Shown here in pieces: positions 1-47,779 of a DNA stretch of 64,000 nucleotides; position 1 is the first letter of the stretch, and each line of letters opens with the position of its first letter. The stretch is from contig NC_016645.1 in the NCBI RefSeq assembly GCF_000234805.1, positions 2,332,391 through 2,396,390 of the forward strand. Reading direction: 5' to 3'. A model generated the notes under the pieces. It was not told where the DNA came from and searched no databases. It was given only the letters and a program-made list of their open reading frames with translations. This stretch comes from Pyrobaculum ferrireducens. GTDB lineage: Archaea > Thermoproteota > Thermoprotei > Thermoproteales > Thermoproteaceae. The position numbers and the translations under genes were made by a program.

Positions 1-897
1 CAGTACAGGGGGCCTAAGAGAGACGACGTGCTCAAGCTCTGCGCGGAGCTGGGCGGGCTGAGACATTTAGCGGTTAAGAACGTGGTGGAGCTGGCCCAGC
101 TCCTCGAGCTGGAGGACGACCTTGAGAAGGCCGAGGAGGTACTCGCCGCTGTTAGGAGAGCCGCCGGCGTGGGGGCGAGGGTTGTGCCGGTGTCGGAGGC
201 CGTTAAGTCATATGCCGTGGCTGAGGTGTTGAAGACTCATGTGAGCGAATTTGACGAGAAGACGCCTTGGGGCGGCCTGCGCTTCGGCTACATCTACGGG
301 CTGGCTGGCGAGTACGGGGCGGGGAAGTCCATGTTCGCCATACAGGCATCGGTACTGGCGGCCCTCGCCGGCAAGCGCGTTGTCTATATCGACACCGAGG
401 GGGCGCTGAACCTCTCCCTCTTCGAGAAAGTCGCCAAGAGATTCGGCTCCGACCTCACCGCGCTGTCTGACAGGCTACACATAACCCAGGTGATAGATCC
501 CATCGATCTGAAGGAGGTTCTGCTGTCGCTTAGGGGCGTCGACGTTGTCGTTGTGGACTCCATGGTGTCTCACGCCCTGCGCGCCCAGTTTAGGGGTAGA
601 GAAAGGCTGGCCGCCCGTCAGCAGTTGCTGGCCTACTTCCTTGACGTTCTGAGGAGGATGGCCGCCGTCTACGGCACCCTGTCTATACTGACGGATCAAG
701 TCATCGACGTGCCGGACTTCTTCAGTAGCAAGAGGCCCGCGGGAGGCAACGTCTTGCTTCACGGGGTCCACGCGCTGTTTCTCATGAGGAGGCCTAACAA
801 GCAGAAGGCTGAGGGCGTGATGATCCCGCTGGACGTGCCGGGGATGGCTCCCACAGTCGAGATTCGCTACGAGATTCGAGATGACGGCCTCTACTAG
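1..897 (+). CDS. RadA/RecA-like ATPase paralogue (5' end outside window)
   Basis: The frame is open to the left edge, so the start is missing; an in-frame GTG at 28 is probably internal. The residues before it and after it look like the end of a helix-hairpin-helix-type N-terminal domain. A P-loop ATPase core follows, with Walker A GEYGAGKS, a Walker B strand VVVVDS and a RecA-type region around LTDQV. RadA-family proteins form filaments on single-stranded DNA for strand exchange, or act as Rad55/RadC-like accessory factors. Near the C terminus the usual 'RK' and polymerisation features are hard to see, so I call a paralogue rather than RadA itself. The stop codon TAG overlaps the first base of the palindromic array that follows. 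Confidence 0.75.
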   Translation, partial: QYRGPKRDDVLKLCAELGGLRHLAVKNVVELAQLLELEDDLEKAEEVLAAVRRAAGVGARVVPVSEAVKSYAVAEVLKTHVSEFDEKTPWGGLRFGYIYGLAGEYGAGKSMFAIQASVLAALAGKRVVYIDTEGALNLSLFEKVAKRFGSDLTALSDRLHITQVIDPIDLKEVLLSLRGVDVVVVDSMVSHALRAQFRGRERLAARQQLLAYFLDVLRRMAAVYGTLSILTDQVIDVPDFFSSKRPAGGNVLLHGVHALFLMRRPNKQKAEGVMIPLDVPGMAPTVEIRYEIRDDGLY

Positions 898-1150
898 TTC
901 TCACTCGGCGTCTCCCCGCCGGGTTTTTCGGTTTGTGAGAACGGCGTGTCGACTGCAATACGCCGTTCCTCACACGCCGTCTCGGAGGCGGGTTCTCCGC
1001 TGTGTGAGAACTAGCGTCTGGCTCCGCGGCGCGGCGTTCTCACCCGGCGCCTCTTCGCCGGATTTCTCGGCTTGTGAGAACAGGCGTTTGAAAAACGGCG
1101 CCGCGTTCTCATCCCCCGTCTCTACGCCGAGCCTCTCGCTGTATGAGAAC
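897..1150. repeat. Array of four ~46 bp palindromic units, ~69 bp period
   Basis: Four units start at 897, 965, 1036 and 1105 and end at 942, 1011, 1081 and 1150. Each opens with GTTCTCAC (one has GTTCCTCAC, one GTTCTCAT) and closes with the inverted copy GTGAGAAC (one ATGAGAAC). Units are separated by 22-24 bp of unrelated sequence. Inside three units there is a second inverted repeat, for example CCGGCG..CGCCGG in unit 3. The eight half-sites alternate in orientation at about 38 and 31 bp. The frame across it is open from 881 to 1174, but the composition follows the repeats and I see no gene. It is not a CRISPR: repeats are too diverged and spacers too short. Confidence 0.85.
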
Positions 1151-1192
1151 CGGCGCGGCTGGAGTGAGGACTAGCCCCTCTTCTCGATAGAC

Positions 1193-1534
1193 ATGTCCTA
1201 CGCGTCTGTGGCTAGGGGCGTGGTGGGGGGTGTGTCTGTCTACGTCTGGCGCCGCGGCGACTCTCTCTACGCCACTCTCTACTACGGCGGGAGGAAGAGG
1301 ACAGTATACCTCGGCAGGTGGGAGCCCAGAGAAGCCTCAAACAAAGAGGGGGACTGCGTGGAGAAGCTGAGGGCCGTGCTGAGGGAGGTGGCTTGCCTCG
1401 TGGAGCTGGCCAGAAGAGCGAGGAACTCCGTGAGAGACCCCCTCGCCGCGGAGGCCCTTGGAGAGTGGGCCTACCCGCCTAAGGTGGTGAGAGACGCTCT
1501 GGAGGAGTTTGAAGTGACGTGTGGAGAGGTTTAA
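1193..1534 (+). CDS. Unrecognised 113-residue protein
   Basis: I do not recognise this family. The first ~45 residues are rich in Tyr and Val with paired basic residues (VYVWRRG, YYGGRKR), which suggests a small beta-sheet; the rest is charged helix, consistent with a small nucleic-acid-binding protein. The ATG at 1193 follows a CTCGATAGAC leader without a clear TATA box. The end overlaps the next gene by 16 bases, which suggests one operon. It lies between a palindromic array and a second unknown gene, so a role in the local replication or partition module is possible but unproven. Confidence 0.55.
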   Translation: MSYASVARGVVGGVSVYVWRRGDSLYATLYYGGRKRTVYLGRWEPREASNKEGDCVEKLRAVLREVACLVELARRARNSVRDPLAAEALGEWAYPPKVVRDALEEFEVTCGEV

Positions 1535-2499
1535 AATCGGAGGTATTTCTGTACGTGGTCTGCGGCCTCTTAAAGCGGATGTTCCGCCTCGCGGGCCTCC
1601 CGGAGGAGGAGGCCGAGGCTAGGGCTAGGTGGGTGGTGAGAGAGCTGGCGTCGAGGCACCCCAACTGCCGCCTCCTCTGCGACGACCTGCGGCGGGTGTA
1701 CAGAGATCTGTCTTCTTACGAGGTGTACGAGATGTGTAGACAGCGCCATCTGGACCAGGTGGCGCAGTCCGCCGACTGCACGGAGCCGATCGCCAAGTCG
1801 GAGCGCTGCGCCCCGCTTCCCATGGCCTCGCCTAGACGCGTCTACTACCCACGCTACATCTTGACAGACAGGACTAGGGTGGCGGAGGCCGTGGCTCTGG
1901 TGAAGGCAATCACGCTGAGGTTCTACCAAAGATTTCAAGAGTTTAGGACTGGGGGGAGGAGGAGGGATGTGGAGGCCTACGTCTACGCCCTCGTGGAGCC
2001 GTGGGAGCTGGACTGGAGGCGTGTTGGGAGGGCGGGGCGTGTGGAGAACTTGAGGACGGCTATGCTCCTCCTCTTGGAGAGCCTGGGCAACCCGGCGGCG
2101 GAGTCGCTCCTCTCCCAGGCCTACGTCTACAGAGACTCGGTAGTTCTGCTAGGCGAGCCGAGGGTGGAGCACGTCATGGCAACTGCGGCCGCCTGGCTTC
2201 TCTTCGGCGGCGTCTACACGCCGTGGCCCCCCACACTGGCGGCCGTGGGGGAGGCCGCCTACAGACTGGCAAGGGGGGTACTCAACATCTACAAGTGGGA
2301 GGATTTTGACAGAGAGCCTCAGCGTAGCGTCTTGAAGGCCTACAGAGAGCTGGCCCAGAGGGCTGAAGCCCCCTTCGACGACGCCGCCGCGGAGATGCTC
2401 ACGGCGCTGGGCCTCTGGGGAAACCCAGTGGTGGTGATGATAGAGACGGGGGCAGACTACCTAGAGACACTAAAAGCCTACTTCAAAATCAAACAATAG
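1519..2499 (+). CDS. Unrecognised 326-residue helical protein
   Basis: Not recognised. The first start is GTG 1519, inside the end of the preceding gene; an in-frame ATG at 1579 (reading MFRLAGLPEEE) is an alternative and would remove 20 residues. The protein is helix-rich, basic in the first third with several Cys (residues ~50-95), and ends with aromatic and charged helices. No transmembrane segment or catalytic motif stands out. Overlap with the preceding gene implies co-transcription. It is followed by short hairpins and then the 32 bp-period repeat array, so it could be a protein that acts on these repeats; that is only positional inference. Confidence 0.55.
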   Translation: MWRGLKSEVFLYVVCGLLKRMFRLAGLPEEEAEARARWVVRELASRHPNCRLLCDDLRRVYRDLSSYEVYEMCRQRHLDQVAQSADCTEPIAKSERCAPLPMASPRRVYYPRYILTDRTRVAEAVALVKAITLRFYQRFQEFRTGGRRRDVEAYVYALVEPWELDWRRVGRAGRVENLRTAMLLLLESLGNPAAESLLSQAYVYRDSVVLLGEPRVEHVMATAAAWLLFGGVYTPWPPTLAAVGEAAYRLARGVLNIYKWEDFDREPQRSVLKAYRELAQRAEAPFDDAAAEMLTALGLWGNPVVVMIETGADYLETLKAYFKIKQ

Positions 2500-18650: not shown

Positions 18651-19325
18651 ATGAAGTTCCCCATACTAATCATAAATTTCAAATCATACAAGGAGGCCGC
18701 CGGGCCCAGGGCTGTGGAAATAGCAAAAGCCGCCGAGAGAGCTGCAAAGGAGCTGGGGGTAAACATAGCCGTGGCTCCCAACCACTTCGAGCTCGCCCTA
18801 GTCGCCCAGTCTGTGGAAATTCCGGTCTACGCCCAGGGCGTCGACGTCGAGAGCGCCGGCGCCTACACGGCCCATACGGCGCTTGAAAACGTCAAGGAGG
18901 TGGGGGCCTCCGGGGTTATTCTAAACCACAGCGAGGCACCCCTCCGCCTAAACGATCTAGGCAGATTCATCCCCAAGGCGAGGGCGCTGGGGCTCGACGT
19001 GGTGACGTGCGCCCCCGACCCGAGGACCAGCCTCGCCGCGGCCGCCCTGGGGCCCAGCGCGGTGGCGGTGGAGCCGCCGGAGCTAATAGGCACCGGCAAG
19101 GCGGTCTCTAAATACAAGCCAGAAACCGTCGTGGAGACTGTGCAACTGGTAAGCAAACACTTCCCCGATGTCGCCGTCATCACCGGCGCCGGTATTGAAA
19201 GTGGTGAGGACGTGGAAGCCGCGCTGAGGCTAGGCACCAAGGGGGTGTTGCTGGCGAGCGCCGCGGTCAAGGCGAAGAACCACTACCAGAAAATAATGGA
19301 GCTGGCGAAGCCCCTGGTGAGGTAG
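18651..19325 (+). CDS. tpiA: Triosephosphate isomerase
   Basis: Interconverts dihydroxyacetone phosphate and glyceraldehyde-3-phosphate in glycolysis and gluconeogenesis. The product is 224 residues, the short archaeal form. Seen in the sequence: the N-terminal INFKSY with Lys11, catalytic His93 in LNHSE, Glu141 in [10 protein letters not shown], and the phosphate-binding [10 protein letters not shown] and GVLLASA segments near the C terminus. An ATG at 18600 is in frame, but its 17 extra residues contain the TATA box. It is monocistronic, followed by a strong hairpin, and converges on the gene at 19403. Confidence 0.96.
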
Positions 19326-19364
19326 TCGCGGCGGGGCCGCCTTTGAGTGTCCGCCGCTCATGAG

Positions 19365-19379
19365 CCCCCGCTCCGGGGG
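19365..19379. terminator. GC hairpin between convergent genes
   Basis: CCCCCG-CTC-CGGGGG forms a six-pair stem between the tpiA stop and the end of the convergent gene at 19403. It could end transcription in either direction; there is no long T-run, so I call it a candidate only. Confidence 0.4.
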
Positions 19380-19402
19380 TCAGACCCACACTACGCCCCT
19401 CC

Positions 19403-30451: not shown

Positions 30452-30484
30452 CGAATACGATTCGTATTGAGTCGGATTTATATC
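30452..30484 (+). promoter_or_regulatory. Palindromic operator (copy 1) plus TATA box
   Basis: AATACGATTCGTATT at 30454-30468, within CGAATACGATTCGTATTGAGT, is followed by TTTATATC (30477-30484). Palindrome centre to TATA centre is ~19 bases, and TATA centre to the protease ATG ~25. The same arrangement recurs at 35377 and 37093. Confidence 0.8.
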
Positions 30485-30504: not shown

Positions 30505-31416
30505 ATGTTACTAAAAAGTATAATACAAAAAAGTGTACGTCTCAGAGGTGAGAGGCCTTGGAGGGAAATGTTAGTTGGTAAAGATGCTTTTAGGAAAGGC
30601 GCGCCGGGGCTTGGTGAGCTGGGAGTTGCTGTGTCGTTGTTTCTCGCGGTGTCTGTATATGGGCTGTCGCTTACAGATAGGTGGGATAACCTCGCTGGAG
30701 GTGTCCAAATCGAGGTAGGTTATTACCAGACCCCCGATCGGTACTTCCTATATGGGTACTGCAGTCTTGGGGCGCCGGTGTATTGGTACGAAGGCGGGGC
30801 GCGGGTATTTGGCTACCTCACAGCTGGACACTGCACAAATAGTCAATATCAAGACGTCGTGCACCAGCCGTACAGAGATTTAAATGCGCCTGACAGCAAC
30901 TATATTGGAGATGTGATTAAAGACAGCTACTATACAGGCCCTACTCCGGTGGTGGACGCAGCTCTAATAAAAGTAACAACATCAAGCAGAACTGTAAAGC
31001 CGTGGATCGCCACCTCCTCAGTGGGATTCCAGACAGACGCGCTCGTAAACTGGTACTACACAGTGACTAATGCGCCACGAGACCCGGGAGGTAGCGGATA
31101 TTCAAAACTCGGATTTAGATGCCAATACGACTCAAGTCTCATTATCTACGATCTTTACATAACGCAGGACAATGCCTTGGTCTATAGAGTAATTAAAAGA
31201 GGCGGAGGAACTATAAATGCTTGCCTAGGTGATAGCGGAGGCCCTGTGTTCTACATGTGGAGCCAAAGAATCGACTTTATGACTGTGTATTATGCAAATA
31301 TACTTGGTATCGTAAAGGGCGGCAACGCATACGCATATCCTACAGTGCTATATGTAACTCCCATTGACGAATCTTTAAATAGGTTACAAGTATATCTATA
31401 TACGTATAGGTCATGA
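30505..31416 (+). CDS. Exported trypsin-like (S1) serine protease
   Basis: The leaderless ATG 30505 gives a 303-residue protein. An unusually long, basic N-terminal segment (~34 residues) precedes a hydrophobic helix (GVAVSLFLAVSVYGLSL), so it is exported or anchored. The catalytic triad is complete: His109 in LTAGHC, Asp151 in VVDAALIKV and Ser244 in CLGDSGGPVF. The chymotrypsin-like barrel is most like streptogrisin-type proteases by the GHC and GDSGG context. S1 proteases are uncommon in archaea. The gene is AT-richer than the housekeeping region, suggesting acquisition. Its stop overlaps the next ATG by four bases (ATGA), so the partner protein is translated with it. Confidence 0.88.
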   Translation: MLLKSIIQKSVRLRGERPWREMLVGKDAFRKGAPGLGELGVAVSLFLAVSVYGLSLTDRWDNLAGGVQIEVGYYQTPDRYFLYGYCSLGAPVYWYEGGARVFGYLTAGHCTNSQYQDVVHQPYRDLNAPDSNYIGDVIKDSYYTGPTPVVDAALIKVTTSSRTVKPWIATSSVGFQTDALVNWYYTVTNAPRDPGGSGYSKLGFRCQYDSSLIIYDLYITQDNALVYRVIKRGGGTINACLGDSGGPVFYMWSQRIDFMTVYYANILGIVKGGNAYAYPTVLYVTPIDESLNRLQVYLYTYRS

Positions 31417-33341
31417 GATCAGTATTATTTTTACTAATTATAACAGTGATAGTATTAGCGGCGCCTCAGATTAAAGTCGTATATGACTTCAATGGCGTGG
31501 TTGTAAACAAAACTTGTTATTTAGTCAAAACACAAGGTCTACCTGTATATATCATCGTCTCCTCAGTGAATGTTAACGAATCTGCTAAAATATCACTCGT
31601 AAGGTCCTTTATAAGTGAGTTGAAGAATATGCCGGGGGTATACATTCGCGGAGATGAGACACTCAGCGAGGACGTTTTGCGGAGACTAAAGGAAGAGGGC
31701 GGCAGGGCAGAGGTATGGCTTGAAGTGTACGTATTTAGTAACAGGTCGTTAGTGAACCATATTGCGGAGAGGGGTAGAAGACTAGGCGTCGGGCTGACTA
31801 TTTACTACATCAACGCCGCAGATCCGGGCCCGTGGCAAGGCCGTGAAAAAGCTGTTGAAATGATGAGCTCTTGGGTAAATGAGTATGTTAAGAGATATGG
31901 AAAAGACGTCTACTTCGGCATTGGGTTTATACTAGATATGCCTATAGTAACTCTCACAATCTTTAACGCCACTGAGGAAGAGGCCGATAAAGTTGCGACA
32001 CGAGTCAGAGAGATCGTGCCGTGTAGATATCCTGTGGTGTACTTTACAGACAAGCTATTTCTATTGCGAACCGCATCTATAGGCGAGGCGACTGCCGCCG
32101 CCCCCCAGGGGCGCGGGGAAAACGCCACCGTGGCTCCGACCTCAGATGTGAATGACGCCAATATGAACGTCATATCGGGTATCTATATATGGCCAATAGC
32201 GCTGTTGGCAATTTCAGCCGCATTGATAATACTACTATTGCATAAGAGAACGAAGATTAAGTCAGGCGTAGTAATGAGATCTCTTTTCGTCTCGCTCCTA
32301 CTGGCGTTATTTGCACTGGCGGCGCCGCCTGTGTTGGTGTTTCCAGACGACTTCAACATAACGGCGGCGGGGAATTACTTAATCATCGAGCCTAAGTCTC
32401 CGGAGGGCATCTGGCTGGTCATAGGCGGCTTGGAGGGCGCGGCGAAGTCGTATATGGGGGCTGTGTTTAACTACACAGATCCACGCCTCTCCTACTGGCT
32501 CAAGGGGGTGGTGGACGAGTTGTTCCCAGACGCCTTGAGCACCGGCGTCTTTTCCCACAAGCCGCCGGTGGCCTACGCCGTGGTTAAAAAGAGGCCGAGC
32601 GAACTTAAGCCGGTCAACGCCACCATAGTCGTGGTAGTAGTGCCGTGGGCAGACAGGAGGCCGGAGAACGCCACGAAGTACCTCGACATGGTGCTGAAGA
32701 GACTCTATAACACGAGGTGGGGAAACGAGACGAGGAAGATCACCGACAAGATAAACCTAGCCCTATTCAGACAGCTGTGTGAAGAGAGGCGGGAGCACGT
32801 AGAGAGGATAATAAAAGAATCTGACAAGCTCCAGCGTATTAAATGCGGCGGGGATCTAGATATAAACGACACAGAGACGAGAAGAGAGCTAGTACTCCTT
32901 CTCTCTCTGCTTGAGTGGAGCGCCGCGTCGATAGGGGCTGTGTCTGAAAAAGGCGACTGGGGCGTCCCGACGGTTAGTGTGGGGTTTGCCAAATCTGTCT
33001 GCCGCGGGATGAACAAGACGGAGCTTGCCGAGGCCGTTGCTAAAATTGCCGAGGAGGCGGGAGGCTACCCCTTCATACTAGAGGTGGGATGCGGCGTGGG
33101 GCCCTTCAAGTTCTTGGCAGAAATCATAGGCTATTCGCCCCTATACCCCGACCCGCCCCGGGATCCTGAGGAATGGCTCGCCTCTGTCGGCGCGGCGTAT
33201 TTAGACGAGGCACACGGCGTAGGGGCAGTGGAGGGGAGCACGTGGAGCCCCGCCGCGGCCGCAGTCCTCGCGTCCACAGCCGCCCTAGCGGCGATGGGCG
33301 TCTTGGCGGCGAAAGCCCGGCGCAGAAGGCAGACCCCCTAA
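31413..33341 (+). CDS. Tandem membrane-anchored ectodomain protein (two proteins in one frame)
   Basis: A single 642-residue frame that looks like two genes joined. Part 1 (residues 1-~285): signal MRSVLFLLIITVIVLAAP, an outside alpha/beta domain with sequons, and a membrane helix (WPIALLAISAALIILLL) with a basic stop-transfer. Part 2 restarts at internal ATG 32275 with a second signal (MRSLFVSLLLALFALAAP), a second ectodomain with Cys pairs, and a final anchor (AAVLASTAALAAMGVLAAKARRRR). No stop separates them. The two ectodomains share a core (IVTLTIF..ADKVATRVREIV / PTVSVGFA..LAEAVAKIAEEA). Either a lost stop codon or independent initiation at 32275. GC content rises sharply near 32280. 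Coupled to the protease, so a protease partner, inhibitor or receptor is plausible. Confidence 0.7.
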   Translation: MRSVLFLLIITVIVLAAPQIKVVYDFNGVVVNKTCYLVKTQGLPVYIIVSSVNVNESAKISLVRSFISELKNMPGVYIRGDETLSEDVLRRLKEEGGRAEVWLEVYVFSNRSLVNHIAERGRRLGVGLTIYYINAADPGPWQGREKAVEMMSSWVNEYVKRYGKDVYFGIGFILDMPIVTLTIFNATEEEADKVATRVREIVPCRYPVVYFTDKLFLLRTASIGEATAAAPQGRGENATVAPTSDVNDANMNVISGIYIWPIALLAISAALIILLLHKRTKIKSGVVMRSLFVSLLLALFALAAPPVLVFPDDFNITAAGNYLIIEPKSPEGIWLVIGGLEGAAKSYMGAVFNYTDPRLSYWLKGVVDELFPDALSTGVFSHKPPVAYAVVKKRPSELKPVNATIVVVVVPWADRRPENATKYLDMVLKRLYNTRWGNETRKITDKINLALFRQLCEERREHVERIIKESDKLQRIKCGGDLDINDTETRRELVLLLSLLEWSAASIGAVSEKGDWGVPTVSVGFAKSVCRGMNKTELAEAVAKIAEEAGGYPFILEVGCGVGPFKFLAEIIGYSPLYPDPPRDPEEWLASVGAAYLDEAHGVGAVEGSTWSPAAAAVLASTAALAAMGVLAAKARRRRQTP

Positions 33342-33361: not shown

Positions 33362-33411
33362 AATACGAATCGTATTCCTATCCCTACAAATGGACGTAGC
33401 AACTTATATAT
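33362..33411 (+). promoter_or_regulatory. Palindromic operator (copy 2, inverted) and TATA of the 33431 operon
   Basis: AATACGAATCGTATT at 33362-33376 is the reverse complement of the other copies, with the flanking GAGT on its left side. The TATA (CTTATATATT, 33403-33412) is ~37 bases from the palindrome centre, about two helical turns further than in copies 1, 3 and 4. It sits ~25 bases before ATG 33431. Confidence 0.7.
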
Positions 33412-33430: not shown

Positions 33431-33787
33431 ATGAGTAGGATATTGCTGTTGTTTATCGTCTTGACATTTTTAATAATAGCGGCAGAGCCAGACGTCACGA
33501 GGGTTGAAGTGCCTATCTCCGGAACCTTAAGCGCGTCAGCGTCGCGGCTCTACGGGCCTTATAGTAGCGTAACCGCTGTCACAATTTCGCTAGATTTCAA
33601 GGGCGGAGAGTTGTGCGCCGGGTACGTGTATGCCGATGACTTCAAGGGGGAGTATAGTTGCTCCACCTCCGGTCGCCTCTACGTCTCGTATTCTGTGGAC
33701 TGGACTAGGGATGTATACATCCTCGTCTACAACCCCTCCTCCAGCTCGGTGAGCTACAGCGGCACGGCGACGTTGTATATATGGTAG
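33431..33787 (+). CDS. Small secreted beta-rich protein
   Basis: ATG 33431 is 25 bases after the TATA centre, although the frame is open further upstream. The 118-residue product has a signal peptide (MSRILLLFIVLTFLIIAAEP) and a beta-rich, Ser/Tyr-rich domain with two Cys (ELCAGYVYAD..EYSCST) that could form a disulfide. The end, SYSGTATLYIW, resembles the closing strand of small pre-peptidase-type beta-sandwich domains. It overlaps the next start by seven bases. First gene of a three-gene operon with a membrane protein and a regulator. Confidence 0.7.
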   Translation: MSRILLLFIVLTFLIIAAEPDVTRVEVPISGTLSASASRLYGPYSSVTAVTISLDFKGGELCAGYVYADDFKGEYSCSTSGRLYVSYSVDWTRDVYILVYNPSSSSVSYSGTATLYIW

Positions 33788-34341
33788 ACGTATTTAAGGC
33801 GTATAGGATGTGCGTAGGCGGCTTTGCCTCATATGTCGCCTCAGCGGCGTGGCTGTGGCTTGCGGCGTTTTTGGCGTATCTAGGTCTGTGGGGGATCAGG
33901 CTGGCGGTGGTGCTGGCGGCTGGCCTTGCCGTAGCCGCGGCCCTCGGCCGCGTCTGGCGGGTGGAGCGTAGCGTGTTGGGGGTACTAAAAGCGGCGAGCC
34001 TCTTTGCGAACCACGGCGATGTCTGCATCGCGGCGCCTTTAGCTAGACGCTTCGCCTTGGCCGTCATGGCGGTGGCTTTGGCATACGCCCTTTACGAAAG
34101 CTACTTGTTAGCGTCTATAGGGGCAACCGTGACTGTCGCCACCACGTCAGACGGGCGGGCTGTGCCGCTGGTGGTCGGCGGCGGCGTCGTGTTGGGGATG
34201 TGGCAAGGCCCTCTTCTATACGTCGCCTTCGCCAGCGCGGCTACGCTCTCCGCGTTTGTTTTTAGGGGGGTCTCCGCCTATGTCGAGTCTTATGTAAAGC
34301 TGAGAGAGGTTTATGGAAGGGCGAAGGAAATTCTTACCTGA
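33781..34341 (+). CDS. Membrane protein, about four helices, unknown
   Basis: The 186-residue product has hydrophobic helices near residues 15-35 and 38-58, a cytoplasmic stretch with Cys and Arg, then helices at ~95-115 and ~145-170, and a charged C-terminal tail. No family recognised. The start ATG 33781 overlaps the preceding stop, and its end overlaps the regulator gene by 29 bases, so all three are one transcript. Confidence 0.7.
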   Translation: MVDVFKAYRMCVGGFASYVASAAWLWLAAFLAYLGLWGIRLAVVLAAGLAVAAALGRVWRVERSVLGVLKAASLFANHGDVCIAAPLARRFALAVMAVALAYALYESYLLASIGATVTVATTSDGRAVPLVVGGGVVLGMWQGPLLYVAFASAATLSAFVFRGVSAYVESYVKLREVYGRAKEILT

Positions 34342-34600
34342 CGTATACACGGCGGCTAGGATTCTACACGTCCTTAGCCAAAGCCCTCTGCCAACCGCCA
34401 GCGTAGCCGCCGCGGCTAGGACAAGCTACGAAAAGGCTCTCCAGTACCTAACCCACCTGGCGCAGAGAGGCTTGGTGGCCAGCGTAGACGGCAGATGGCA
34501 CCTAACAAAAGAGGGGCAAGCCGCCCTACTAAAACTTGAAGAGGTGGTAAAAACGCTAGCCGGCATAAACCTCAGCGACGCGGTAAGAAAGAGACGCTAG
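34313..34600 (+). CDS. Winged-helix DNA-binding regulator
   Basis: The 95-residue protein has a helix-turn-helix (ILHVLSQSPLPTASVAAAAR), a recognition helix (TSYEKALQYLTHLAQRGLV) and a wing (ASVDGRWHLTKEGQAALLKL), as in small MarR/PadR/ArnR-type archaeal regulators. It is the last gene of an operon whose promoter carries palindrome copy 2, so it is the best candidate in the window for the protein that binds the four palindromes. Direct evidence is lacking. Confidence 0.8.
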   Translation: MEGRRKFLPDVYTAARILHVLSQSPLPTASVAAAARTSYEKALQYLTHLAQRGLVASVDGRWHLTKEGQAALLKLEEVVKTLAGINLSDAVRKRR

Positions 34601-34608
34601 ATATGTCT

Positions 34609-34642
34609 GACCCACCCCGCTCCCCGGCGCTCGGGGCGGGTC
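34609..34642. terminator. Strong hairpin between regulator gene and TnpB remnant
   Basis: GACCC-A-CCCCG pairs with CGGGG-C-GGGTC across a 12-base loop, ten pairs with one mismatch. It can end transcripts from both sides. It may also be the subterminal hairpin of the decayed IS element to its right. Confidence 0.45.
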
Positions 34643-35221
34643 ATAGACGCCCTCTTCCCCTTGGCGGGGTCATGGGGCCGGCCCGGCACGGCGGGCTCTT
34701 TCGGCTCCCTGGGCTCCATTTCGTAGGTGAAGATAGCATATAACCTGTGCTTCACTCTTCTTAACCTAATCGTCGACGATCTCTCGGCCTTGCCCATTCT
34801 GACAAGCCACTCGAATTTCCAGAACCGCATGTGGGGCCAGAGCTCCGCGGCGTGCCTCCCAGACATGAGGCGTATGGACACCTCCGTGAGGGAGCTGAGG
34901 TGCTACGCGGTTTCGACAACGTATGGCGCCACACGCCTCACCTCCGGGGGCTTCCCTCCAGTTTCAACCCAGGCGTTGTAGGTCTCGACCGCATTTTTCA
35001 CTGTTTATTGCTGGTAGGCGAAGGGGGGCCGAGCCGACTCACGGCCTCCTCGCCTCGTGCCATATGCTGAAGTAGCTGGCTCTTCTCCCGCCGTAGTTCT
35101 GGACTAGGTACTCCACCACGGCCCTCTTCGCCCTCCTATACGCCCTTTTAAGCACAAGAAAGTTAAGGAACTGGTTGCCGTCCAGCAGAAGCGGCACCGC
35201 GGCAGACCCCGTTGCCGCCAC
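34643..35221 (-). pseudogene. Remnant of TnpB/OrfB-type transposon gene
   Basis: Minus-strand reading from 35221 starts FLNFLVLKRAYRRAKRAVVEYLV, then breaks. Further on, from about 35015, AVETYNAWVETGGKPPEVRR runs into an in-frame TAG near 34903 and continues as SIRLMSGRHAAELWPHMRFW and RLRRVKHRLYAIFTYEMEP to about 34700. The last motif matches the strand after the N-terminal region of IS605-family TnpB proteins. The RuvC-like nuclease half is missing. So this is a truncated, frame-broken relic, flanked by hairpins at 34609 and 35251 that may be the element's ends. Confidence 0.5.
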
Positions 35222-35250
35222 GTCTAAATTGAAGCTTGCTAAAAACCTTA

Positions 35251-35270
35251 CCCCGCCCTAAAGAGCGGGG
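35251..35270. repeat. Hairpin upstream of TnpB remnant
   Basis: CCCCGC-CCTAAAGA-GCGGGG. IS200/IS605 elements carry subterminal hairpins of this kind, so it may mark the left end of the decayed element. Confidence 0.4.
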
Positions 35271-35376
35271 TTTGCAGTCGCCCTATCAAGGCCTACACGG
35301 CCCCCATTTTTAACGTAGAAGTGGCCCGGGCAACCTGCAATCGTGATGCTGAAGAAACTGATGATGGACGGCAATG

Positions 35377-35408
35377 CGAATACGATTCGTATTGAGTCAA
35401 ATTTATTA
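35377..35408 (+). promoter_or_regulatory. Palindromic operator (copy 3) plus TATA box
   Basis: AATACGATTCGTATT at 35379-35393, again followed by GAGTCAAA and then TTTATTA (35402-35408). GTG 35431 is 26 bases after the TATA centre. Confidence 0.8.
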
Positions 35409-35430: not shown

Positions 35431-36207
35431 GTGAAACACCACGGATCAGATAGAAATAGTTCCAGTAGAGTTAAAGTTGTTGCAATGCGGATAATTGCGC
35501 TCGTAATCTTAGCGCTCAGCGCGGCCCAGCTATATGCGGACACTTGGCAGAACTGCAATAATATATACATAGTAAATAAAGAGCGGTATGACTCCTATGG
35601 GAATTATATGAAAATTGATTATGGAGTTTGTTTACAGACCCAGTACTATAACTACGTGAACGGGATGAAGATGTATCCGTGGATATTTGTAATGGCTGTG
35701 CATACAGATCCCAATGAGTTAGCTGGATGGAGAGTAACCGCCTCGGGAGTCAACGACAGATGCGGCGCCACAATGCAAGACGTCAGGATAGATCTTATGT
35801 CTTCAAATGCCCTATACTCCGGGCTTCTAGGCACATACTACGCTCCGGTGCCCGGGAGGACAATAGACGACACGTCGAGAAAATGGCAGTCGTTCGAAGT
35901 CTATGTAATACTGGGAAATGTTCAAATCGGTATCAAATACTCATGGGAAGATTTGATCACAAAGAACGAAACTAGAGTGTCTGCCCTCACCACCACGAGG
36001 ACCATGTGGGATAGGGCGCTGGCTACGGGCGGTTTATATTCAGACAGCGCATGGGCTTGGAAATTCGCGGCGGCTGCCTACGTAGATCCCTCGCCCGGAA
36101 GCGTGAGGGTGGTATACGCCGCGAGAACCAACTACTGGAAGGACGAGTGGCCGTCGTATCCATGTACCTATATGGCATACGCATACGACGTCTCGTGGAC
36201 AGTATGA
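35431..36207 (+). CDS. Exported protein of unknown function, palindrome-controlled
   Basis: GTG 35431 is fixed by its TATA box; an internal ATG (MRIIALVILALSAAQLYAD) at 35485 would also give a normal signal peptide. The 258-residue product is Tyr/Trp-rich, with paired Cys (NCNN, GVCLQT, RCGATM, YPCTYM) suited to disulfides outside the cell. The mature part is beta-rich. No family recognised. Like the serine protease, it is the first gene under the palindrome and overlaps a downstream anchored protein by four bases (ATGA). Confidence 0.7.
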   Translation: MKHHGSDRNSSSRVKVVAMRIIALVILALSAAQLYADTWQNCNNIYIVNKERYDSYGNYMKIDYGVCLQTQYYNYVNGMKMYPWIFVMAVHTDPNELAGWRVTASGVNDRCGATMQDVRIDLMSSNALYSGLLGTYYAPVPGRTIDDTSRKWQSFEVYVILGNVQIGIKYSWEDLITKNETRVSALTTTRTMWDRALATGGLYSDSAWAWKFAAAAYVDPSPGSVRVVYAARTNYWKDEWPSYPCTYMAYAYDVSWTV

Positions 36208-36809
36208 GAACCGCGGTGTTGTTAATCGCCGTCGTCGCTGTTGTGTTCGTTGCCATATACGCCTCTGGCTATCTACAGCCCCAGGCTCCCGAGCCTCCCA
36301 TCGGCGAGCTGGAGGAGCTCCGCCTCTTCATAACGCCTGAAAACGGCACCAAGACCTCGAGGTGGGAGCTCTGCGGCATGAAGATCTACGGCAAGGGGGC
36401 GTACTATAAGAAGGGCGACATCATAACGTCGCCTATCAAAGACATAGAAGAGCTACCGGAGAAAATTAGAAAGGACTACTCAGACCCCGTGAGGGCATAC
36501 GTCGCGGGGGGTATAAGAGCGGATAAAGACGGCTACATCTACTCCATATACTTCCACAGGCCGGAGGGAGGTGCGGGTCTGGCAAGTACGTCCGTACTGA
36601 TAGAGGAGCATAACGTAACGGCGATAGGGTCGGGCGGCGTAGAGTCAGCTACGCTGAGGGTACGCGGCGTTGAGTACAGCTTCTGGCTAGGCACGGTGGA
36701 GAAGGTCACGTCTAGAAACGCCACTGTGTACATAGTCTGCGGCATAGATAAGGAAAAGGTGGAGAAAAGGCTAGGAGAGATAAGAAACGAGCTAGTAGGC
36801 AAGAAGTAA
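36204..36809 (+). CDS. Membrane-anchored exported protein, unknown
   Basis: The 201-residue product has an N-terminal anchor (MRTAVLLIAVVAVVFVAIYA), a proline-rich spacer (QPQAPEPPIG) and an outside domain with two Cys and several sequons. The C-terminal half has beta strands (SATLRVRGVEYSFWLGTVEKV) and a basic helix. It follows the secreted protein with an ATGA overlap, so it belongs to the copy-3 operon. Function unknown; the secreted-plus-anchored pairing repeats that of the protease operon. Confidence 0.7.
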   Translation: MRTAVLLIAVVAVVFVAIYASGYLQPQAPEPPIGELEELRLFITPENGTKTSRWELCGMKIYGKGAYYKKGDIITSPIKDIEELPEKIRKDYSDPVRAYVAGGIRADKDGYIYSIYFHRPEGGAGLASTSVLIEEHNVTAIGSGGVESATLRVRGVEYSFWLGTVEKVTSRNATVYIVCGIDKEKVEKRLGEIRNELVGKK

Positions 36810-37092: not shown

Positions 37093-37125
37093 CGAATACG
37101 ATTCGTATTGAGTCAAGTTTATACC
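37093..37125 (+). promoter_or_regulatory. Palindromic operator (copy 4) plus TATA box
   Basis: AATACGATTCGTATT at 37095-37109, followed by GAGTCAAG and TTTATACC (37118-37125), with the same ~19-base spacing as copies 1 and 3. An ATG lies 26 bases downstream at 37147. Confidence 0.8.
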
Positions 37126-37146: not shown

Positions 37147-37329
37147 ATGTCTGGAAGAAATGTATCAAATAATTTCCGCGGCAACCGGAGTTCCCTACAG
37201 CATAGGCACTGGGAAGTGTTGCAGGTCATTTACGGCGCGGGAGGGAGTGAGGAGTATGGCTGTGATAATTTCTTCTTCCGTAGTGTTGATGCTGTTAATC
37301 AAGCTCTCGGCGTAGTGGGGTGGAGATGA
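37147..37329 (+). CDS. Small ORF under operator copy 4, frame uncertain
   Basis: ATG 37147 is at the leaderless distance and gives 60 polar residues (MSGRNVSNNFRGNRSSLQHR and on) without a signal. A second frame from ATG 37160 to the stop at 37313-37315 gives 51 residues ending in a membrane segment (MAVIISSSVVLMLLIKLSA), more like the exported proteins of the other operons. Which frame is used cannot be decided by eye. By position it replaces the secreted first gene of the other palindrome-controlled operons and may be a remnant. Confidence 0.35.
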   Translation: MSGRNVSNNFRGNRSSLQHRHWEVLQVIYGAGGSEEYGCDNFFFRSVDAVNQALGVVGWR

Positions 37330-38180
37330 GGTTTTTGGTTTTGTTGGTTTTGGGTGGCGTGTTGCTCGGCGCGGGTGTGTTGTATGTAGACATGTCTAGG
37401 TATGTGGTTGAGGTTGAGACGGCTTGCGGCCCCTCCTACATATTTACGGCGCCGCTAGACGACTACGTTAATCTCCACAAGTGGCTTGAGGAAGCTGGCC
37501 TTGTGGAGAGGTACGACAGCCCTATTCGCAAAAAGGCTAGGGAGGCGCTCGGCATAAGATCGGAGGAGAATGCAACTATAGAGCAGTGGAATGCCCTTGT
37601 TAACCTCAGCCTCTACATGCTGGGCGACGGGCTGAATGCGGTGGAGGAGGCGCTGAGGAGAGCCGGCGTCGAGGTTTTGGGAGTAGGTCCCGGCTCCGGC
37701 AAGCCGCCTGTAGACAAGGCGAACAGCGGCACTGTAGTCGCCTTTGTCAGGCTGGGCGGGAGGGGGGAGGTTTTAAAAGAGCTGGAGAAGGTGGCCGCCG
37801 TATATAACATATCTGTAGTCGTGGTGGATCTGCCTAGAGTTAGGGCTTTTGAAGGGAATAAGACTGTGGACTCGGTGCCCGGCCTCGGCGCGCCTGCACA
37901 CGGCCTGGTTTCCATCACGATCTTTGGCCGTTTTGGCGACGTGGCCTACTATGTAGGGAAGCCGGACGAGGAAACGGTTAAGTCTGTGGCTAGGTATCTA
38001 CGGGAGAGGGAGCTCTGCGGCGTCGCCGTGGTGTTTGTACCCAGCGAGAGGTACATCCCACGCCTAGCCCCCGCAGGCGGAGGCGGCCCCGGAGAACGCC
38101 AAAGCCTCCTAACAGCACTTGCCGCAGTGGCCACACTAGCGGCCGCCGCCCTCCTACTACACAGAGGCTCTAGACGTTAA
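37326..38180 (+). CDS. Membrane-anchored ectodomain protein, homologous to 31413 product
   Basis: Starts at ATG 37326 (GTG 37320 is an alternative), overlapping the small ORF. The 284-residue protein has a signal or anchor (MRFLVLLVLGGVLLGAGVLY), an outside alpha/beta domain with sequons, and a C-terminal anchor (LLTALAAVATLAAAALLL) with RGSRR. The stretch GLVSITIFGRFG..DEETVKSVARYLRERE..GVAVVFV aligns by eye with part 1 of the 31413 protein. So the protease operon and this one encode related anchored partners. Role unknown. Confidence 0.7.
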   Translation: MRFLVLLVLGGVLLGAGVLYVDMSRYVVEVETACGPSYIFTAPLDDYVNLHKWLEEAGLVERYDSPIRKKAREALGIRSEENATIEQWNALVNLSLYMLGDGLNAVEEALRRAGVEVLGVGPGSGKPPVDKANSGTVVAFVRLGGRGEVLKELEKVAAVYNISVVVVDLPRVRAFEGNKTVDSVPGLGAPAHGLVSITIFGRFGDVAYYVGKPDEETVKSVARYLRERELCGVAVVFVPSERYIPRLAPAGGGGPGERQSLLTALAAVATLAAAALLLHRGSRR

Positions 38181-47662: not shown

Positions 47663-47779
47663 GCCCCGGCGAAGAATCGGGGAGCCGCGGCGTGCCGGCC
47701 GCTCCAACCGGTAGTCTAGCCCGGTCAAGGATGCGGGCCTCTCGAGCCCGTGACCCGGGTTCAAATCCCGGCCGGGGCA
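47663..47779 (+). tRNA. tRNA-Glu (CTC) with a 42-base intron after the acceptor stem
   Basis: The 5' acceptor strand GCCCCGG (47663-47669) pairs with CCGGGGC (47772-47778), discriminator A. The T arm is CCGGG-TTCAAAT-CCCGG, and anticodon loop CTCTCGA (anticodon CTC) has stem CGGGC/GCCCG. Between position 7 and TAGTCTAGCC of the D arm lies an extra ~42 bases (about 47670-47711), GC-rich and self-pairing. Because CCGG occurs at both borders the exact splice sites can shift by up to four bases. A TATA box (CTTATAAATA, ~47635-47644) is ~24 bases before the 5' end. CCA is not encoded. Confidence 0.88.

What the first reader, a model, noticed from the sequence alone, without database searches (positions are those of the whole stretch)
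30505..33341. Exported serine protease translated together with an anchored partner
The S1 protease has a full triad and an ATGA overlap with a membrane-anchored ectodomain gene. Secreted-plus-anchored pairs recur at 35431-36809 and probably 37147-38180. A protease with a dedicated membrane partner could be a surface-processing, defence or competition system.
Basis: inference. Interest (0 to 1): 0.7.

Follow-up and report, generated by a model that had tools for sequence, protein, structure and literature searches.

The report
Secreted protease with anchored partner
A heat-loving archaeon makes a secreted trypsin-like protease from the same message as a membrane-anchored partner protein; every relative of this protease that I found has such a partner, the protease has been broken about ten times while the partner stayed intact, and neighbouring gene units share one DNA switch, so the partner is probably the protease's built-in guard.

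Summary
30505-31416 encodes an exported S1 (trypsin-fold) protease with a complete triad. It overlaps by ATGA with 31413-33341, a membrane-anchored protein that is really two fused units. The pair is not local. The 13 relatives that lack a pro-region and have an open catalytic frame (Pyrobaculum-type genomes plus three more families) all have a downstream gene with hydrophobic segments at both ends. None of 15 S1 proteases with a long N-terminal (pro-like) region has one, although this contrast may be a single evolutionary change.

New evidence: (1) At ten loci the protease is disrupted while the partner is open; the reverse was never seen. (2) A perfect 15-bp palindrome, AATACGAWTCGTATT, lies before four units of the cluster. 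Genome-wide it occurs five times exactly and once with one mismatch. At five of the six sites it sits 36-38 nt before the start codon of an exported protein. Only the two genomes with the local wHTH gene carry the array.

Best explanation: the partner is a cognate guard (inhibitor and perhaps folding aid) that works like a pro-domain in trans. Homology to cis pro-regions is suggestive only; the two structure models were too weak to decide. Defence, competition and surface processing remain untested.

The parts
30454..30468 (.). Palindrome AATACGATTCGTATT, operator-like, before unit 1 (protease)
   Evidence: exact palindrome, 4 in window against 0.57 expected with up to 3 mismatches; start codon 37 nt downstream of its end
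30505..31416 (+). Exported S1 protease, 303 aa, triad H109/D151/S244, no pro-region
   Evidence: Pfam Trypsin over cut-off; profile match to streptogrisin B; alignment
31413..32273 (+). Partner first unit (half 1): signal-like segment, ectodomain, TM; the part that always follows the orthologous protease
   Evidence: ATGA overlap; orthologues in G009, G001, G005
32274..33341 (+). Partner second unit (half 2), fused in frame: second signal-like segment, ectodomain, TM
   Evidence: relatives as free genes in G002 and G009
33362..33376 (.). Palindrome AATACGAATCGTATT before unit 2, inverted relative to the others, 55 nt from the start codon
33431..33787 (+). Unit 2: small exported protein, 118 aa, no family
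   Evidence: ORF read from sequence; no Pfam match
33781..34341 (+). Unit 2: hydrophobic membrane protein, 186 aa, overlaps the previous gene
   Evidence: no Pfam match
34313..34600 (+). Winged-helix (HTH_45) regulator, 95 aa; candidate reader of the palindrome (inferred)
   Evidence: Pfam PF14947 E 2.9e-8; near-identical orthologue only in G009, the other genome with the array
35379..35393 (.). Palindrome before unit 3, 38 nt from the start codon
35431..36207 (+). Unit 3: exported protein, 258 aa, GTG start, no family
36204..36809 (+). Unit 3: N-anchored protein about 201 aa, ATGA overlap with the previous gene; not related to the protease partner
   Evidence: sequence; no BLAST match to the other partners
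37095..37109 (.). Palindrome before unit 4, 38 nt from the start codon
37147..37329 (+). Relic of a second S1 protease: 60-aa ORF still running from the start codon to the junction with the partner
   Evidence: tblastn of the G009 protease; frames; full-length form in G009 L151:2113-2910
37326..38180 (+). Unit 4 partner, 284 aa, SP-ectodomain-TM, homologous to partner half 1
   Evidence: 28% identity over the ectodomain, profile match; orthologues in G009, G001, G005, G007

Best explanation
Each unit makes an S1 protease that is exported and a cognate membrane-anchored protein that is translated with it and faces the same outer side of the cell. SHOWN: the pairing, the gene overlap, the hydrophobic anchors, the absence of a pro-region in these proteases, and the one-sided loss of the protease. 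INFERRED: the anchored ectodomain binds its own protease and holds it inactive close to the membrane, so that the producer's envelope is not cut; it probably does the job a pro-domain does elsewhere (inhibition, perhaps also folding) but in trans. The protease then acts away from the cell, in scavenging, matrix turnover or attack on neighbours. The palindrome beside the TATA box switches several secreted-plus-anchored units together; the wHTH protein of the cluster is the best candidate for its reader.
For: All 13 pro-less proteases with an open catalytic ORF are followed at -28 to +13 nt by a gene with hydrophobic segments at both ends; none of 15 with a long N-terminal region is (loci). Protease disrupted with partner open at ten loci, the reverse never. 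Two independent internal deletions (window unit 4, G001 unit 4) leave a short ORF that still runs into the partner start. Partner evolves faster than protease (74 against 50, 66 against 41, 75 against 44, 51 against 41 % identity), as pro-regions and guards do. Cis pro-region profile matches the unit-4 partner family (33.7 against shuffles 13.8+-2.8). Nearest solved relative is streptogrisin B, a kind of enzyme made with a pro-domain (general knowledge).
Against: No binding or inhibition data. Cis/trans contrast needs only one change on the tree. Pro-domain homology is absent for most partner families and the two models are too poor to decide. The window's unit-4 partner, whose protease is lost, shows dN/dS 0.68 against 0.30 and 0.28 for the fused halves, hinting at relaxed constraint (few changes). 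Some frameshifts could be assembly errors or programmed.
Confidence: 0.45

Rival explanations
1. Dedicated steric chaperone only: the anchored partner folds the exported protease and lets it go, as LipH does for lipase LipA; it is not a guard.
For: Pro-less proteases of a kind that normally needs a pro-domain to fold (general knowledge); one anchored partner per protease; LipH precedent (PMC13381987).
Against: A folding helper should decay with its client, but at ten loci the partner is open and the protease is not.
Confidence: 0.22
2. Surface tether or subunit: the partner anchors the protease on the cell surface as part of a processing or feeding complex.
For: Co-translation, C-terminal anchor, similar size in all pairs.
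Against: Same asymmetry problem as the foldase reading; the proteases have their own hydrophobic N-terminal segment and could be held without help.
Confidence: 0.13
3. The partner is the substrate: the protease sheds or matures its anchored partner, as the metzincin does with the TIMP-like lipoprotein in Listeria.
For: Retention of the partner without the protease fits a partner with a function of its own; precedent PMC8235301.
Against: Partner ectodomains evolve faster than the proteases and the partner families share no evident motif; no cleavage data.
Confidence: 0.12
4. No special relation: an operon of exported proteins in which gene order is conserved by descent and the protease is simply lost more easily.
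For: The cis/trans states may be one change on the tree; unit 3 and the 571-aa gene show that the same operator also serves unrelated exported proteins.
Against: Pairing holds across genomes, paralogues and four families with partner sequences diverged beyond recognition.
Confidence: 0.08

Closest known systems
Streptogrisin / alpha-lytic protease group of family S1 (N-terminal pro-domain, Pfam PF02983)
   Same: Trypsin fold, triad, matches around the catalytic His and from before the Ser to the C-terminus; mature start motif GGVQI...CSLG resembles that of the cis-pro relatives in the same genus.
   Different: No pro-domain in the chain; no PF02983 match over cut-off in the genome; instead a second, membrane-anchored gene.
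Lipase-specific foldase LipH with lipase LipA (PMC13381987)
   Same: Secreted enzyme with a cognate membrane-anchored helper.
   Different: Different enzyme and no evident sequence relation; here the partner outlives the enzyme; folding role untested.
Metzincin / TIMP-like pair Mtz-Tim of Listeria (PMC8235301)
   Same: Secreted protease encoded with a membrane-held, inhibitor-like partner and local regulators.
   Different: Metalloprotease, lipoprotein, phage origin; there the protease probably cuts the partner.
Toxin-immunity pairs, and halolysin-dependent antagonism in haloarchaea (PMC12893001)
   Same: Secreted active protein followed by a gene that outlives it; extracellular serine proteases do take part in archaeal antagonism.
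   Different: No toxicity known here; no delivery module; in haloarchaea the protease acts by cutting a precursor, with no anchored partner described in the abstract read.

Membership tests
Peptidase family S1 (trypsin fold) | family profile over its curated cut-off | tested here: met
   PF00089 26.7 bits, cut-off 20.6; more distant relatives fall below it
Peptidase family S1 (trypsin fold) | His-Asp-Ser triad in order | tested here: met
   H109, D151, S244 conserved
Streptogrisin / alpha-lytic group with pro-domain | mature domain nearest to this group | tested here: met
   streptogrisin B best PDB match, E 1.1e-5
Streptogrisin / alpha-lytic group with pro-domain | N-terminal pro-domain in the same chain | tested here: not met
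   signal segment is followed directly by the mature start; no PF02983 over cut-off in the genome
Pro-domain acting in trans | homology of the partner to cis pro-regions | tested here: inconclusive
   unit-4 partner family above all shuffles, half 1 marginal, other families no; models too weak
Pro-domain acting in trans | binds, folds or inhibits its protease | not testable with these tools
   needs protein work
Membrane-anchored foldase system (LipH type) | client does not fold without the partner | not testable with these tools
   needs refolding assay
Toxin-immunity pair | protective gene directly downstream and kept when the effector is lost | tested here: met
   ten loci with protease disrupted and partner open, none reversed
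Toxin-immunity pair | effector harms cells that lack the partner | not testable with these tools
   needs expression test
Known anti-phage defence system | match to a PADLOC model | tested here: not met
   no hit for protease or partners; only a weak wHTH hit for the regulator

The most novel reading that the evidence does not exclude
An archaeal lineage has split the pro-domain off its S1 proteases and turned it into a membrane-anchored, co-translated guard, creating protease-immunity pairs that diversify quickly, often lose the protease while keeping the guard, and are run as a regulon by a palindrome beside the TATA box.
Probability: 0.3. Interest if true: 0.8.

Novelty: new variant of a known kind. 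Interest (0 to 1): 0.6.

Why it matters
S1 proteases are sparse in archaea and how they mature there is little described. Here enzymes of the streptogrisin kind have no pro-domain but always a second, anchored gene, so the question of how they fold and are kept harmless becomes testable with two proteins. The one-sided loss of the protease is the signature expected of a harmful enzyme and its guard, which would be an unusual protease-based self-protection or competition system in hyperthermophiles. The shared operator gives an archaeal regulon with a clear site and a candidate reader.

Tried and rejected
PF02983 search of the genome: nothing over cut-off. Profile search of partners against solved structures: nothing credible. 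I first took the 13/13 against 0/15 contrast as independent proof of a cis/trans swap and withdrew that, because the tree needs only one change. The second half of the partner was considered as another protease partner: the stretches upstream of its free relatives show no protease remnant that BLAST supports. Viral origin: one search of viral contigs found no relative; the alignment search could not be run. Defence system: no PADLOC model. G265 looked like a far relative but carries Pyrobaculum-like copies of two loci and is probably contamination. The two genomes without the array that were checked (G001, G005) have no palindrome of their own upstream of the same units.

Full report
OBSERVATION. 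The protease starts at ATG 30505, about 25 nt after a TATA-like box, and ends at 31416. The partner starts at 31413 inside the ATGA overlap and ends at 33341. The protease is a true S1 enzyme: Pfam Trypsin over its cut-off, triad H109/D151/S244, nearest solved structure streptogrisin B (two stretches, around the His and from before the Ser to the C-terminus). The genome is Pyrobaculum-like: an Rfam Pyrobaculum antisense RNA lies in the window; organism names beyond that are inference.

THE PARTNER IS DOUBLE. Its 642 residues hold two signal-ectodomain-TM units joined at M288. G001 and G005 carry only the first unit behind the orthologous protease. A relative of the second unit is a free gene in G002 and in G009. 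The fusion is seen only here and in G009.

THE PAIR IS GENERAL. Profile searches of 81 genomes of the class and an even sample of 398 of the phylum found S1 relatives in few genomes. Read one by one, all 13 without a pro-region and with an open catalytic ORF have a next gene at -28 to +13 nt with hydrophobic segments at both ends. They include G023, G359 and G368, from other families. A second kind, with a roughly 200-aa pro-region in the same chain, occurs in the same genus, and further S1 proteases with a long N-terminal region occur elsewhere in the phylum; none of these 15 has such a partner, although for one of them (G290) the contig piece ends inside the gene and for five others under 900 bases of downstream sequence were at hand. 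Five of the Pyrobaculum ones are followed instead by a different, N-anchored protein. On a tree of 28 proteases the two states need only one change, support 55/67, so the contrast is consistent with, but not independent proof of, functional replacement.

ONE-SIDED LOSS. The protease is disrupted and the partner open at ten loci. These are: window unit 4 (internal loss, 60-aa relic); G001 unit 4 (in-frame deletion that keeps signal and tail); G005 three times, G007 and G001:1127k (frameshifts); G178 (stop). To these add G368 (signal segment in another frame) and the group L186/L187/L188 (signal segment in another frame in all three copies, counted once). G368 and the L186-L188 group keep an open catalytic ORF and are therefore also among the 13 above; only nine of those 13 have an in-frame signal segment. 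One locus (G001, second copy) has both genes disrupted; none has an intact protease beside a disrupted partner. The search used the protease as bait, so the reverse case would have been easier to find. If lesions fell on either gene with equal chance, 10:0 has probability about 0.001 (my arithmetic). Assembly errors should hit both genes alike. Against over-reading: the window's unit-4 partner shows dN/dS 0.68 against 0.30 and 0.28 for the fused halves, on few changes.

PRO-DOMAIN LIKENESS. Cis pro-regions end in what reads as a strand-strand-helix-strand element just before the mature N-terminus, and the partners end in a similar element just before their TM (inspection; the models agree at low confidence). 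Profile comparison supports homology for the unit-4 partner family (33.7 against 13.8+-2.8 in shuffles), is marginal for the protease's own partner (21.6 against at most 20.7) and absent for the rest. The aligned stretch for the unit-4 family is 69 columns with a long gap. I therefore claim 'works like', not 'is', a pro-domain.

SHARED SWITCH. AATACGAWTCGTATT occurs four times in the window, before all four units; 0 of 100 shuffles reach four even with three mismatches allowed. In the genome there are five exact sites and one with a single mismatch, against about 0.0015 exact sites expected from base composition. At five of the six, GAGT(C) and a TATA-like box follow and the start codon is 36-38 nt away (the figure 40 printed for unit 4 used a start codon two bases off; the correct start 37147 gives 38). 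The two sites outside the window precede a 571-aa exported protein and another exported protein of 161 aa with an anchored-looking gene further downstream. The fourth site in the window is inverted and 55 nt away. G009 has the same array; of the other nine genomes of the genus only G005 has a site, one, with a mismatch, on its 17-kb second contig. The wHTH gene of unit 2 has a near-identical orthologue only in G009. Its role as reader is inference.

MECHANISM. Best supported: anchored cognate guard of an exported protease, possibly also its folding aid (0.45). Foldase alone, tether and shedding enzyme remain open. Defence and competition are possible uses, with no direct evidence here. Archaeal extracellular serine proteases are known to take part in antagonism in haloarchaea (PMC12893001), and membrane-anchored cognate helpers or inhibitors of secreted enzymes are known in bacteria (PMC13381987; PMC8235301); the 2008 survey of prokaryotic serine proteases counts one trypsin-family protein in Pyrobaculum aerophilum and the passages read mention no partner (PMC2605481).

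Noticed in passing
L205 (G001) 465-2268, minus strand: A free-standing pro-region-like ORF overlaps, in another frame, a clear serpin gene (PF00079, E 5.9e-74). Pyrobaculum serpins are studied as inhibitors (PMC5297747); S1 proteases like these are candidate native targets.
   Followed up: partly
L204 (G006) 1402-2172; L200 (G014) 823-2148, minus strand: Stand-alone copies of the cis pro-region with an N-terminal TM and no protease domain; in G014 one is followed directly by the N-anchored protein that normally follows cis-pro proteases.
   Followed up: partly
L186, L187, L188 (protease N-terminus): In all three copies, from two genomes, the signal segment and first residues of the protease lie in one frame and the catalytic body in another, with the shift at the same place; programmed frameshift or old lesion.
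   Followed up: partly
window 34313-34600; L158 2835-3143; G009:C1:910436; G006:C1:950832: Small wHTH genes of one family lie within about 2-10 kb of protease-partner loci in several genomes.
   Followed up: no
L157 3265-4935; L155 2029-4095; L153 3141-4856; L156 8768-10111: Large exported proteins of 450-690 aa recur near protease-partner loci; possible substrates or matrix proteins. They share almost no detectable similarity.
   Followed up: partly
window 35250-35271, minus strand: GC-rich hairpin with a T-rich tail in the gene-poor stretch 34600-35400.
   Followed up: no
window 19323-19380: Rfam Pyrobaculum asRNA3; also tRNA-Glu at 47706-47778.
   Followed up: no
G265:C8 (L215): A genome of a distant family carries near copies of two G001 loci: probably contamination of that assembly.
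   Followed up: no
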